64,000 nt of DNA from Silvimonas terrae (lineage in GTDB: Bacteria; Pseudomonadota; Gammaproteobacteria; Burkholderiales; Chitinibacteraceae): assembly GCF_014202765.1 (NCBI RefSeq), contig NZ_JACHHN010000006.1, forward strand, positions 248,001 to 312,000, given 5' to 3'. The position numbers were made by a program, and so were the translations under genes. Numbering within the stretch: the first letter of the stretch is position 1; each line of letters starts with the position of its first letter. Of the stretch, positions 59,695 through 64,000 are shown one piece after another. The notes below the pieces were generated by a model. That model was not told where the DNA came from and searched no databases. It saw nothing but the letters and a program-made list of their open reading frames with translations.

Positions 59695-60963
59695 ATGTCC
59701 ATGACGGAATCTCCGCTTGCCGAATTTTTCCAGCCCGGTTTCAACCCGGCTGATCTGGCGCCGCTGGCGAGCCTTTTGCGCGCGCGCGAATCCCTCGGTG
59801 CATTGATCACTTTGTTTCGCGGTGGCGAAGATGAAGTGATGGTGCGGCTGTTGATCCTGCGCGTGATCGGTTCACGTGCCGATGCGCCGCGCTGGCGTCC
59901 GCAAGAACTGGAAACGCATTTCTCCTACATCAACCCGATCAAGCGCGACACCGTGCTCAAGCGCCTGCGTGAAAACGGTTTGCTGGTGTGGGATAGCGAC
60001 GAAGGCTTGTATAGCCTGTCCGAATCCGCCCGCATTGCGCTCGCCGCGATTGCCACACTGACCCAGTTTGCAGATGGAGATGCCGAACTGGGTTATCTGA
60101 CCGCACAAGTCGCGGCCGGGCAGGCGGTGGGCAATGTCTCGCCAGAAGCCCTCCAGCATCTGCATGCACGCCTGAACGAATTGCATACGGACTTTGAGGA
60201 GGCGCTGGAGTCTCAGTCCGAGTTCCAGATCCGCAAGGCGCGCGCCAAACTGCAAAGTGTGTGGAGCTGGGTAGAGAAGGGCACGGAGGTGGTTCGCACG
60301 GTGCTCGAAGACGAATCCGGCGAGCGGCACGTCCAGCAGGTGGCACAGGCGATTGCGCTGGCGCAGGGGCGCATGTTGCGCATGACCAGCGTATTCCAGC
60401 GACGGCTGGCCGAACTGGGTGCACAGCGTGTGCATCTTGGGCAGTCCGGGCTGACTTCGACCAACGTGGCGGACTGGCTGCGCGAGCGCTCGCAAGAAGA
60501 ACTGGCCGGGCTGGGGCGCGATCTGCTCAGTTTCCACCCGGAGCCGGGCTTTGTGGTGTCTGATATCTTGCTGGACGTCACCGAATTTGAATTGCTGGAA
60601 CGCGAACGCGACCAGATCACGGACTCAGCCCTGCCTTCATCCGAGTTCTCTCCGTCAGTGACCGCGCTGGAGGCAGAGCGGCTGGTGCATGCCGAAGAAC
60701 TGTTTGCCCTCTTGCAGGGGATTGATCTGGAAACGCCGCTGGCCAACGCTGTGCTGGCGGATACGTACCCGGAAACCGCCTACCGGCTCTCGCTGTTATC
60801 CCTGTTGGGTGATCAGGAGGCCGCGCTGGAACAAAGCGTGGTGGCAGACCTTGTGAAGCTGCCGCTGGCGTTTGTGACTGAAGATGCTGTGGATGAAATA
60901 GATCACCCAGATGTCGCCACGCTGACGCGTGGCAGTCTGCGGCCGTTAGGCGGTGTAAAATGA
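59695..60963 (+). CDS. Winged-helix kleisin-like protein (MukF/MksF/JetA-type candidate)
   Basis: A 422-residue protein. Residues about 45-115 look like a winged-helix domain (MVRLLILRVIGSR, RDTVLKRLRENGLLVWD, LYSLSESARIAL). A long, mostly helical part follows, with ELHTDFEEALESQSEFQIRK and LAQGRMLRMTSVFQRRL. That combination recalls the kleisin subunits of MukBEF/MksBEF/Wadjet complexes, and the operon ends in an SMC ATPase. I cannot assign it to a named family by motif alone. A 7-bp-stem hairpin covers its stop codon. The next gene starts 28 bp on. Confidence 0.6.
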   Translation: MSMTESPLAEFFQPGFNPADLAPLASLLRARESLGALITLFRGGEDEVMVRLLILRVIGSRADAPRWRPQELETHFSYINPIKRDTVLKRLRENGLLVWDSDEGLYSLSESARIALAAIATLTQFADGDAELGYLTAQVAAGQAVGNVSPEALQHLHARLNELHTDFEEALESQSEFQIRKARAKLQSVWSWVEKGTEVVRTVLEDESGERHVQQVAQAIALAQGRMLRMTSVFQRRLAELGAQRVHLGQSGLTSTNVADWLRERSQEELAGLGRDLLSFHPEPGFVVSDILLDVTEFELLERERDQITDSALPSSEFSPSVTALEAERLVHAEELFALLQGIDLETPLANAVLADTYPETAYRLSLLSLLGDQEAALEQSVVADLVKLPLAFVTEDAVDEIDHPDVATLTRGSLRPLGGVK

Positions 60964-60982
60964 TTGCAGTTAATCGCAATCA
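60961..60982 (+). other. Hairpin overlapping the first stop codon of the SMC operon
   Basis: TGATTGC (60961-60967) pairs with GCAATCA (60976-60982). It includes the TGA of the kleisin-like gene and lies nine bases before the next ATG, so it could tune translation between the two. Confidence 0.5.
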
Positions 60983-60991
60983 GGTCTGAAC

Positions 60992-61642
60992 ATGAGTCTG
61001 CTGGATGATTTGAAAAAACAGGCACAGTCCCGCGCCGTGGATGACGCTCAGGTGCGTGCTGAGCGTGAGCAGCGCGTTACTGCCGTTGATGAAGCGTTGC
61101 GGCGCGCTTTTGCCTGGCTGTATGAACTGACCGAACAACTGAAAGTGCTGCGCCCGGACAATCCGCGTCGTTATCTGATCTGGGGTGTGGGGGAATGGCA
61201 AGGTCTCACCTTCGACAAGGCAGCGGTAGATATGCGCATGACGCGTATTGAGGCCGTTGATCGTGCCAGTTCGATTGAATTTGCAGTGATCTGGCATGCA
61301 CCGCAACCGCTGATGGCCAGTTATACCTCGCAGTCTGAAGCGGGTTATCTCAAGGACAAGTTGTGGCAACTGGGTTGCCGGCTGGAAGAGAAAATCATCC
61401 GCAATGCAGAGAACCGCTTTGTGCGGGCAGTGCTTGAGATCGAACCCGTATTGCCCACCCGCTGGCGCTTTGAAGGCCTGCATGAAGAGGGTCAGATCAG
61501 ACTGACCGTGCGCAATCTGGATGAATTGCGTGAAGACACCGTTTTGATTGCGCCCGATGCATGCGGCCCGGCGCTGTGCGAGGAGCTGGCCTGTGCGCTC
61601 CTTGGCAAGCCCAACCAAGTGGCCGCGCTGCTCAAACGCTAA
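60992..61642 (+). CDS. Unknown 216-residue protein in the SMC operon
   Basis: A cytoplasmic protein of mixed charge. A short N-terminal helix (LLDDLKKQAQSRAVDDAQVRAERE) precedes a globular part with RRYLIWGVGEWQGLTFDKAA, IWHAPQPLMASYTSQSEAGY and MRMTRIEAVDRASSIEFAV. I recognise no family. Its tight position between the kleisin-like and MksE-like genes suggests that it is a subunit or accessory factor of the SMC complex. Confidence 0.6.
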   Translation: MSLLDDLKKQAQSRAVDDAQVRAEREQRVTAVDEALRRAFAWLYELTEQLKVLRPDNPRRYLIWGVGEWQGLTFDKAAVDMRMTRIEAVDRASSIEFAVIWHAPQPLMASYTSQSEAGYLKDKLWQLGCRLEEKIIRNAENRFVRAVLEIEPVLPTRWRFEGLHEEGQIRLTVRNLDELREDTVLIAPDACGPALCEELACALLGKPNQVAALLKR

Positions 61643-61653
61643 CCCGGATTTAC

Positions 61654-62364
61654 ATGGATCAAGCCCTTAATATTCTTGTGGCGCGGCTGTTGGCGCACCG
61701 TTTTCTCCCCCGCAAAGACCCACTGGCGCGCCGCGCGCTGGTCGACGAAGTATTCCGCGAGAGCCTGGAGCGCCGTCTGGAAGAATGCGGCCTGCAACTG
61801 CTGGAGAACCCCTACGCCGAGCATATTGCTGTCGGCCTCAAACCCGAAATGGAAGAGTGGGTGTTTGGCGAGGGAGAGAACTGGTTATCCAATAATATGG
61901 GCCTGCCACGTGATGCCATTGCCCTGTTGGTTGTGGTCTGGGCATTGATCATTCTGCCCAAGCGGGAGCGTCAGATTGCACGGGCCTCCACCGCCGGGGA
62001 TACCCAGACGGATATGTTTGGCACCGAAAAGCCCATTGCCCGAGGTGAAGAGGTGGCACCCGGCGTGCCGGAAGACGCGGTATACGCTGACTTTGGCAAG
62101 AAACTGGGCGGCAAATCACGGTTCTCCATGAACCTGGGGCAACTGGCCAAGCTGGGGTTTGTGATACGCCGCAACAAGATGATCCATGAAGGCCCGTTGC
62201 TGGACTTGATGATCGACTACGCCAGACTCGCGCCGCGCATTATTGAAGGCGCACTGGCTGAAGTCCTCAAGCTCACCGGCACGCGTATCGCTGTAGATGA
62301 TGACGCTAGCGGTGAGGATGATCCCGAAAACACCACCGAAACCGCCGCGGGGGAAGAAGTCTAA
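61654..62364 (+). CDS. MksE/KITE-like subunit candidate
   Basis: A 236-residue protein. The segment LVDEVFRESLERRLEECGLQ followed by NPYAEHIAVGLK, then VWALIILPKRERQ and MNLGQLAKLGFVIRR, resembles the winged-helix MksE/JetB accessory subunits of SMC complexes. An acidic, low-complexity C-terminal tail follows. The start at ATG 61654 lies 11 bp after the previous stop, and the stop overlaps the SMC start by one base (TAATG). The identity is inferred from layout and size. Confidence 0.6.
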   Translation: MDQALNILVARLLAHRFLPRKDPLARRALVDEVFRESLERRLEECGLQLLENPYAEHIAVGLKPEMEEWVFGEGENWLSNNMGLPRDAIALLVVVWALIILPKRERQIARASTAGDTQTDMFGTEKPIARGEEVAPGVPEDAVYADFGKKLGGKSRFSMNLGQLAKLGFVIRRNKMIHEGPLLDLMIDYARLAPRIIEGALAEVLKLTGTRIAVDDDASGEDDPENTTETAAGEEV

Positions 62365-64000
62365 TGTTCCAGATCCGCGAACTTGAAATGATCCACTGGG
62401 ACTTCTGGCGCGCCATCCGCGTGCCGCTGGATGCCCAGATTGTCACCATCGTTGGCCCCAATGGTTCGGGCAAAACCACCTTGCTGGATGCCCTGCGCAC
62501 GCTGCTGGCGCTCAAATGCTCCGGCCGGCGTGACTACAAGCGTTATGTGCGCAACAACCGGGAGAACTACGCCTGGTTGCGCGGCGTGGTCTCCAACCCG
62601 CGTCGCGAAGCGGGCGGCTTGTTTCCGACGCTGTTTTTCCCCGCGACGAGCGAGGTGGTCACGCTGTTTTGCCGTATCCGCAAGCAAGGCGGAGACTGGG
62701 TGCGCCAGTACGCTATTGCCGAAGGCGACGTCACGCTCGATGCCCAGACTGAAAGTGCGCTGCAGTGGCTCGGCGTAAATGAATACAAGCGCCGGCTGGA
62801 ACAAGCCGGTTTGACACCGGCCATTGCCGAAGTGCTGGCACTGGAGCAGGGCGACACCGACAAATTGTGTGAGTACTCGCCCAAGGGCTTGCTGGAACTG
62901 GTGTTCCAGGTGTTTGGTGACAAGCAAGTGCTGGACCACTACGCCGAAGCCAAGTTGCGTCTGAAAGAGGCCGAAGGCGAGTTGTCCAAGATGGAACAGC
63001 AACTCAGTCAGGTCGGCCTGGATGTTGAGCGGCTGAAATTGCGAGCCAACAATTATCTGGAATGGCGTGCGCTGCAGGGCGATATCGAAAAGCTGGAACA
63101 GCAGGCGGTGCCCGCGCTCAAGTATGTGGAGCAGTGGGAAAGCCTGCGCGGGTATATCAATCAGTTCCGTGGCGCGCGCAAAACCCTGCGTCTGAAACAA
63201 GATGAACTCGACACCCTGGACGAACAGTATCGTGCCATTGCGACAGGACAGGAGTCCGCCCAGTCGCAAGAAGAAGCCGCTCGCAAAGAGCATGACGAGG
63301 CCTACGCCACTTTCCAGGTGACGCGTGACGCCGCTCGCGACAGCGAAAAGACCATGAAAGAGGCCGAGCGCCTGCGGCAATTGGCCGAGGCGGAGCACGG
63401 CGCGGACGGCGTGGCGCTGAATGACAAGCTGGCGCAACAGCGCGAAGCCGTCGGCAGGCTTAAACAAACCATCAAGCTGATGAAGGACGAGCGCCAGGAA
63501 CTGGCGCAAGCGCAGTTTGCCTTGCAGCAAGGGCGGCAACCGCATCCGGATTTTGTAAACCGCATGCGCGCCGCGCTGGATGAAGCTGGCATTGCGCATC
63601 AACTACTGACCGAAATCGTGGAAGTGCGCGATCACACCTGGCAAGACGCGGTGGAAGCGCTGCTGGCACCGTACCGTCATATCATTTTGCTGAACCGCGC
63701 CAGCGACCGGAAAGCGGCATTTGGCATTGGTCAGCAACTGAAATACCGTCATTTCATCGTGCCCGAACGGGAGCCGGTAGAGCGCGCCAGCCGCAACTCG
63801 ATTCTGGAAGTGGTCGATTTCAAGGCCGATGCGCCAGGCTGGCTGGTCAGCCTGTTGAACCGCACGCAGCGGGCCAAATCGGTTGCCGATGGCGACCATC
63901 TGGATGGCGACTGGATCACCCGCGACGCTTATCACAAGGAACGCCGCGGTGCGCGGGATATCTCCGCCCGCCCTGGGGATTACGCTTTCGGGGAGGCCGC
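62364..64000 (+). CDS. SMC/MukB-like ATPase, cut by the window end
   Basis: At least 545 residues, open to the window edge. The N-terminus MFQIRELEMIHWDFW is followed by Walker A GPNGSGKTT (31-39), then NRENYAWLRGVV, LEQGDTDKLCEYSPKGLLEL and a long coiled coil from about residue 190. Around residues 410-440 the sequence EIVEVRDHTWQDAVEALLAP looks like an SMC hinge start. This gene organisation, head-coil-hinge, marks a condensin-type ATPase rather than RecN or SbcC alone. The second head domain and any nuclease (JetD-like) would lie beyond 64000. Confidence 0.85.
   Translation, partial: MFQIRELEMIHWDFWRAIRVPLDAQIVTIVGPNGSGKTTLLDALRTLLALKCSGRRDYKRYVRNNRENYAWLRGVVSNPRREAGGLFPTLFFPATSEVVTLFCRIRKQGGDWVRQYAIAEGDVTLDAQTESALQWLGVNEYKRRLEQAGLTPAIAEVLALEQGDTDKLCEYSPKGLLELVFQVFGDKQVLDHYAEAKLRLKEAEGELSKMEQQLSQVGLDVERLKLRANNYLEWRALQGDIEKLEQQAVPALKYVEQWESLRGYINQFRGARKTLRLKQDELDTLDEQYRAIATGQESAQSQEEAARKEHDEAYATFQVTRDAARDSEKTMKEAERLRQLAEAEHGADGVALNDKLAQQREAVGRLKQTIKLMKDERQELAQAQFALQQGRQPHPDFVNRMRAALDEAGIAHQLLTEIVEVRDHTWQDAVEALLAPYRHIILLNRASDRKAAFGIGQQLKYRHFIVPEREPVERASRNSILEVVDFKADAPGWLVSLLNRTQRAKSVADGDHLDGDWITRDAYHKERRGARDISARPGDYAFGEA

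What the first reader, a model, noticed from the sequence alone, without database searches (positions are those of the whole stretch)
59695..64000. Four-gene SMC operon with kleisin-like and MksE-like genes plus an extra unknown subunit
Seen: overlapping or closely spaced genes, a winged-helix helical protein, a 216-aa unknown, an MksE-like protein and an SMC ATPase with P-loop and hinge-like segment. Known: MukBEF, MksBEF and Wadjet (JetABCD) use kleisin, KITE and SMC subunits, and Wadjet adds the nuclease JetD to remove plasmids. The 216-aa gene between kleisin and KITE candidates does not fit any layout I know. This could be a chromosome-organising complex or a variant plasmid-defence system.
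Basis: partly seen in the sequence, partly recalled or inferred. Interest (0 to 1): 0.75.

Follow-up and report, generated by a model that had tools for sequence, protein, structure and literature searches.

The report
Divergent SMC operon with optional nuclease
A bacterial chromosome carries a divergent set of genes for a ring-shaped DNA-handling machine, and just past the window's edge it has a DNA-cutting partner like that of plasmid-destroying Wadjet systems; related bacteria keep the machine but often lack the cutter, which makes it a useful natural case of a chromosome organiser and a plasmid-defence system shading into each other.

Summary
The operon is real but has five genes, not four. 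The window cuts the SMC gene; the contig gives A (422 aa), X (216), B (236), C (SMC, 937) and D (405), a JetD/MksG-like Toprim nuclease, then a YjbR gene. A-B-C is a tight core: 48 of 48 genomes with A also have B and C, C linked in 47. obg lies upstream in 33 of 48 loci. D is a dedicated but optional partner: 9 of 43 scorable sampled loci, at least 4 state changes on the core tree, 6 with three added loci. X does not look like a regular subunit: 4 of 45 sampled operons have it, it is not enriched in genomes with A (7 seen, 8.6 expected), its relatives are mostly stand-alone genes, and other lineages carry GNAT or HAD genes inside the operon. Best reading: a divergent Wadjet/MukBEF-group SMC complex, here armed with the nuclease. 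The type I marks DUF3375 and DUF4194 were tested and not met; kleisin and KITE roles for A and B rest on gene order, a winged-helix hint and weak profile signals.

The parts
59695..60963 (+). A: kleisin-position subunit (422 aa), N-terminal winged-helix-like region, then helical
   Evidence: ORF; 45 of 300 genomes of the order have a homologue; profile residues 41-110 weakly match a winged-helix regulator, 5zhc E=0.0086; no Pfam family over cut-off for the window protein
60992..61642 (+). X: 216-aa gene of a mostly stand-alone family, moved into the operon; probably an accessory or passenger gene
   Evidence: no Pfam family for it or, over cut-off, for 5 relatives tested; two-sequence AlphaFold2 model: long N-terminal helix plus beta strands, pLDDT 67
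61654..62364 (+). B: KITE-position (MukE/JetB-like) subunit, 236 aa
   Evidence: next gene after A in 48 of 48 loci, apart from X or other inserts; weak PADLOC JetB1/JetB3 matches, best 0.002
62364..64000 (+). C: SMC ATPase, N-terminal part; the full 937-aa gene is L002:5365-8178
   Evidence: SMC_N 2.1e-15; Walker A, SGGQ signature and Walker B conserved in 24 homologues; best PDB match JetC 8dk2 3e-9. The fifth gene D (JetD-like nuclease) lies outside the window at L002:8185-9402

Best explanation
A-B-C(-D) is a divergent SMC complex of the MukBEF/Wadjet group. A is the kleisin, B the KITE subunit and C the SMC motor, which by analogy entraps DNA and extrudes loops using ATP. D is a JetD/MksG-type Toprim nuclease that, by analogy with Wadjet, cuts small circular DNA once extrusion has run to completion on it. 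The A-B-C core behaves like a resident chromosomal complex, and D is a dedicated but optional weapon. In this genome the complex is armed, so it most likely restricts small plasmids. X is most likely a gene of another origin moved into the operon, not part of the shared machine. Shown: gene content, conservation, catalytic-type residues of D, distribution. Inferred: kleisin and KITE roles, loop extrusion, plasmid cutting.
For: D matches PADLOC JetD1 (1.5e-12) and Pfam DUF2399 (23.4 bits, equal to the cut-off). It aligns with canonical JetD at a Glu, the DxD and the C-terminal EQE; by motif these fit the metal-binding E236/D279 and proposed E349/E351 of MksG (PMC10123090, passages). All 8 genomes with a strong D hit (10 of 200 match) have D directly after C: 7 in A-B-C-D operons, 1 on a contig that begins at C. 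A, B and C co-occur in 48 of 48 genomes. Gene order as in jetABCD. The top PDB match of C is JetC. A-JetA and B-JetB profile scores are reached by 3 of 40 and 2 of 40 column shuffles, crossed pairs by 26 and 27 of 40.
Against: Neither A nor B is placed in JetA/JetB or MukF/MukE by a significant match; hhalign gives about 1% probability for both pairs, and in the global mode A-JetA does no better than shuffles (18 of 40). A's best PADLOC match is JukB, not JetA. The AlphaFold2 model of B failed (pLDDT 39) and A was not modelled. For C, PADLOC ranks mad3 above JetC1, and the best stretch against JetC in the PDB is only the Walker A region. D is missing from 34 of 43 scorable sampled loci, so plasmid cutting cannot be the general function of the core. 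D of G332 lacks one of the two C-terminal Glu and D of G169 the second Asp of DxD.
Confidence: 0.7

Rival explanations
1. The complex is purely a chromosome-organising condensin (MksBEF-like), and D has a chromosomal job such as topology control, not plasmid defence.
For: obg upstream in 33 of 48 loci in several families; amino-acid-changing differences of A, B, C are lower than those of rlmL in 4 of 5 genome pairs; A and X have no match in 72,556 plasmids; 34 of 43 scorable sampled loci lack D.
Against: D keeps JetD catalytic-type residues and differs 3 to 7 times more than the core at non-synonymous sites (pN 0.21-0.24 against 0.03-0.08), unlike a housekeeping enzyme. ScpA is found in 285 of 300 genomes, including this one, so a chromosome condensin already exists. 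By dN/dS the core is clearly more constrained than rlmL in only 2 of 5 pairs.
Confidence: 0.2
2. X is a true fifth subunit or regulator of the complex, for example setting nuclease activity or target choice.
For: X is fitted tightly between A and B, overlapping A in G139, in three genera, and looks under purifying selection (dN/dS 0.145, one pair, dS near saturation).
Against: 4 of 45 sampled operons have X; X occurs in 7 genomes with A against 8.6 expected by chance (45 and 57 of 300); two congeners, fetched because they have D, have A-B-C-D without X; GNAT and HAD genes lie in such slots elsewhere. X and D occur together in 1 of 12 D-bearing loci.
Confidence: 0.15
3. C is an SbcC/RecN/Lamassu-type repair or defence ATPase with unrelated partners, and A and B are not kleisin and KITE.
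For: PADLOC also lists mad3 (best), LmuB and AriA for C; A and B lack significant relatives of known function, and A's best PADLOC match is JukB.
Against: Both SMC heads and a conserved middle in 937 aa; JetC is the top PDB match; linked JetD-type nuclease.
Confidence: 0.06

Closest known systems
Wadjet type I (JetABCD; MksFEBG of Corynebacterium glutamicum)
   Same: Gene order kleisin-KITE-SMC-Toprim nuclease; D aligns with canonical JetD at the catalytic-type residues; JetC is the best PDB match of C.
   Different: No DUF3375 in A or in this genome and no DUF4194 in B; C is 937 aa against 1123-1145 in four canonical JetC of the same order; D often absent. DUF3375 systems are separate: 16 of 120 genomes over cut-off, of which G032, G056 and G077 also have A.
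MksBEF / MukBEF condensins
   Same: Three-gene core without nuclease in most relatives sampled; chromosomal; present beside SMC-ScpAB, as told for P. aeruginosa MksBEF (PMC7485682, passages).
   Different: No Pfam MukF/MukE match; a dedicated nuclease in a subset. Direct comparison with P. aeruginosa MksBEF was not made (no named sequence at hand).
Wadjet group as surveyed in PMC7617805 (passages)
   Same: That survey accepts MksB over 890 aa and an optional MksG, so it may already contain these operons.
   Different: Its operon list (Data S1) could not be opened; its rule of consecutive hits might miss operons with an insert such as X.

Membership tests
Wadjet type I | JetA with DUF3375 | tested here: not met
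   A and 23 homologues: no DUF3375; no DUF3375 match in G000; hhalign A against canonical JetA 1.3%
Wadjet type I | JetB with DUF4194 | tested here: not met
   B: no Pfam family at E up to 1; PADLOC JetB1 in 3 of 24 members, best 0.002; hhalign B against canonical JetB 1.4%
Wadjet type I | JetC, MukB-like SMC ATPase | tested here: inconclusive
   PADLOC JetC1 1.1e-18 with mad3 higher, 9e-21; PDB JetC 3e-9; shorter than four canonical JetC
Wadjet type I | JetD Toprim nuclease with Glu, DxD and C-terminal ExE | tested here: met
   PADLOC JetD1 1.5e-12, DUF2399 at cut-off, residue alignment
Wadjet type I | Restriction of small circular plasmids | not testable with these tools
   needs an experiment
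Wadjet types II and III | Match to their PADLOC Jet models | tested here: inconclusive
   only weak hits: JetB3 0.015-0.05, JetD2 0.0028
MukBEF | MukB/MukF/MukE Pfam families over cut-off | tested here: not met
   MukB N-terminal 0.0083, below cut-off; no MukF or MukE for A or B
P. aeruginosa-type MksBEF | Sequence relationship to MksB, MksE and MksF | not tested
   no named sequence available; the founding paper is not held
SMC-ScpAB | ScpA kleisin as partner | tested here: not met
   no ScpA match for A in Pfam; this genome has one ScpA hit, and A did not give it
Wadjet/MukBEF-group SMC complex (broad) | Co-directional kleisin-KITE-SMC genes with optional MksG/JetD | tested here: inconclusive
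   gene order, SMC and nuclease met; folds of A and B unproven

The most novel reading that the evidence does not exclude
One SMC complex lives two lives. A-B-C is a resident, strongly conserved chromosome organiser, and a fast-evolving, dedicated JetD-type nuclease is repeatedly gained or lost beside it, even within one genus, switching the same motor between chromosome upkeep and plasmid destruction, with accessory genes such as X inserted to tune it.
Probability: 0.3. Interest if true: 0.7.

Novelty: new variant of a known kind. Interest (0 to 1): 0.48.

Why it matters
It is a divergent SMC operon whose A and B find no significant relative of the expected kind in Pfam or PADLOC. [quoted passage not shown]

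Tried and rejected
X as a KITE or kleisin duplicate: its two-sequence model is a long helix plus beta strands, and the PDB comparison gave only low matches (best Z 5.3; no Foldseek hit at E 0.001); inconclusive, no family is excluded by it. X as plasmid cargo: no plasmid match. D remnants in D-less operons: none by tblastn at 1e-3; in G297 D is missing between C and YjbR, with about 130 bp in its place. A-B-C replacing SMC-ScpAB: rejected, ScpA is in 285 of 300 genomes. Viral copies: none for A; two short head-only matches for C. B model: pLDDT 39, unusable. The obg rows are out of frame and void. X beside scpA: 1 of 55 stand-alone places, taken as coincidence.

Profiles of A, B and C: 24 of 48 loci each; of D: 8 of 12. 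Core tree: 47 of 48 loci (the 48th has C on another contig). Loci L148-L150 were fetched because they carry D, and are left out of the unbiased counts.
Full report
Anatomy. The window ends inside the SMC gene. The same contig (L002) completes it: A 422 aa, X 216 aa, B 236 aa, C 937 aa, D 405 aa, then a YjbR gene overlapping the end of D, then a gene that reads as rlmL; upstream are a Core-2/I-branching glycosyltransferase and a gene that reads as obg. rlmL and obg were named by eye. The genes are spaced by 28, 11, -1 and 6 bp.

Identity of C and D. C has Walker A, the SGGQ signature and Walker B, conserved in 24 homologues, and its best PDB match is JetC (3e-9), though PADLOC ranks mad3 (9e-21) above JetC1 (1.1e-18). 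Conserved positions in the middle of C I read as a hinge; that label is recalled, not a tool result. D matches JetD1 in PADLOC (1.5e-12) and DUF2399 in Pfam at its cut-off. Aligned with three canonical JetD of the same order, D keeps the Toprim Glu, the DxD and a C-terminal E-x-E. The MksG paper reports E236 and D279 as metal ligands and E349/E351 as proposed nucleophiles (PMC10123090, passages); that these positions correspond is my inference from the motifs. Two relatives deviate: G169 (second Asp to His) and G332 (first Glu of ExE to Gly).

Identity of A and B. The window's A and B reach no Pfam cut-off; the A members show only scattered weak matches, best 0.0011. The A profile has one weak PDB match, to a winged-helix regulator over residues 41-110 (E=0.0086). 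In PADLOC, A members hit JukB (10 of 24, best 5.2e-5) and HTH_IX (7 of 24), not JetA. B hits JetB models weakly (best 0.002). Profile-profile comparison with canonical JetA and JetB gives about 1% probability. The local scores are reached by 3 and 2 of 40 column shuffles, crossed pairs by 26 and 27 of 40; in global mode B-JetB is reached by 0 of 40 but A-JetA by 18 of 40. The AlphaFold2 model of B from one sequence failed. Kleisin and KITE are therefore assigned by position, not proven.

Distribution. A occurs in 45 of 300 genomes of the order. Of 274 class genomes, at least three of them of the order, 2 match: the own one and G360, where A is in fragments. No match in 72,556 plasmids. B by profile: 1 of 252 class genomes, the own one. 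I fetched 48 A loci: the 45 plus three fetched because they carry D (G310, G331, G332). B follows A in 48 of 48, C is linked in 47 and lies on another contig in the last. obg is found upstream on the same strand in 33 of 48 fetched stretches and rlmL downstream in 20 of 48. The tree of A+B+C largely follows the family codes, with exceptions such as L110, which fits mainly vertical descent; it is a quick tree with some long branches.

D is optional but dedicated. In the sampled loci D is present in 9 of 43 that could be scored in the tree; with the three chosen loci, 12 of 46. At least 4 changes (sampled) or 6 (all) are needed on the core tree, which cannot tell gain from loss. In a profile search of 200 genomes, 10 match; the 8 strong ones have D directly after C, and the 2 weak ones have the canonical JetD motifs. 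In the window's family, 5 of 43 genomes match D, 4 strongly. Within the window's genus, G000 is A-X-B-C-D, G297 is A-X-B-C, and G331 and G332 are A-B-C-D. Among G000, G297 and G331 the core is 94-97% identical, while X is 73% (G000-G297) and D 67% (G000-G331).

Rates (five genome pairs, dS 0.8 to 3.1 and so near or past saturation). Among G000, G297 and G331, dN/dS is 0.02-0.05 for A, B and C, 0.03-0.08 for rlmL, 0.08-0.15 for the flanking glycosyltransferase, 0.145 for X and 0.149 for D (one pair each). In G297-G331 rlmL (0.032) is as constrained as the core, and in the two pairs with G332 the core (0.07-0.09) is not more constrained than rlmL (0.045-0.083). By non-synonymous differences the core is below rlmL in 4 of 5 pairs, and D is 3 to 7 times above the core in its three pairs.

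X. X homologues are in 57 of 300 genomes (59 places); 4 of the places lie in the A-B-C operon, and no A, B or C was found in the stretches fetched around the other 55. X and A are together in 7 genomes against 8.6 expected (45 and 57 of 300). In 26 of the 55 stand-alone places one gene family follows on the same strand; in L054 the next gene is a type II/IV secretion ATPase (T2SSE). Neighbours that read as dapD and dapE were named by eye. Operon copies of X are 50-73% identical to the window's, the stand-alone ones 21-28%. Other lineages have genes in such slots: GNAT between A and B (L121, L123), GNAT between B and C (L111-L113) and HAD between A and B (L119); Pfam was run on one of each, the rest were read by eye. 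X is thus best read as a gene moved into a permissive place in the operon, though its tight fit in three genera leaves room for a role.

Function. Wadjet JetABC is proposed to extrude loops, and JetABCD cuts circular DNA while plasmids over about 100 kb or linear ones escape (PMC10586767, passages). With D's residues intact here, anti-plasmid activity is the likeliest function in this strain. In relatives without D the same core must do something else, most simply chromosome organisation, as for P. aeruginosa MksBEF (PMC7485682, abstract start and passages). D matches three plasmids. On two Variovorax plasmids a C homologue is broken: in WDL1 its halves lie about 30 kb apart, each beside an IS1071; in RA8 only the C-terminal half is found, beside IS1071. 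This fits, but does not prove, that an active copy is harmful to a plasmid.

Novelty. Five searches of the open library (listings and abstract starts, plus passages of four papers) showed no description of this operon, but the Wadjet-group survey of PMC7617805 may contain it and its list could not be opened. I class it as a new variant of a known kind.

Noticed in passing
L154, L206, L207 (Variovorax plasmids NZ_LR594663, NZ_LR594690): C and D homologues on plasmids (about 38% and 33% identity) where the SMC gene is broken beside IS1071; xseA-xseB, ThiF and UvrD genes lie downstream of D and a DUF262 gene nearby in RA8, resembling a defence island.
   Followed up: partly
L125 (G195): A-B is followed directly by genes that read as lptE and holA, and C lies on another contig: the operon may be split in this draft genome.
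   Followed up: partly
L064:9679-11477 (G264): A stand-alone X gene lies next to scpA, another kleisin gene; 1 of 55 stand-alone places.
   Followed up: partly
L054, L038 and 24 other loci: Stand-alone X relatives share a downstream neighbour on the same strand, a T2SSE ATPase where tested (L054): an unnamed family with a conserved neighbourhood.
   Followed up: partly
L149:10490-10676: The A-B junction of G332 holds what looks by eye like an imperfect inverted repeat where G000 has X.
   Followed up: no
L196 (G360): The only A match outside the order is broken into frames beside a D fragment: a decayed or misassembled copy.
   Followed up: no
L194 (G192): An operon with the layout of canonical Wadjet I (480, 221, 1145 and 403 aa) is present in a genome that also has A-B-C-D.
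   Followed up: partly
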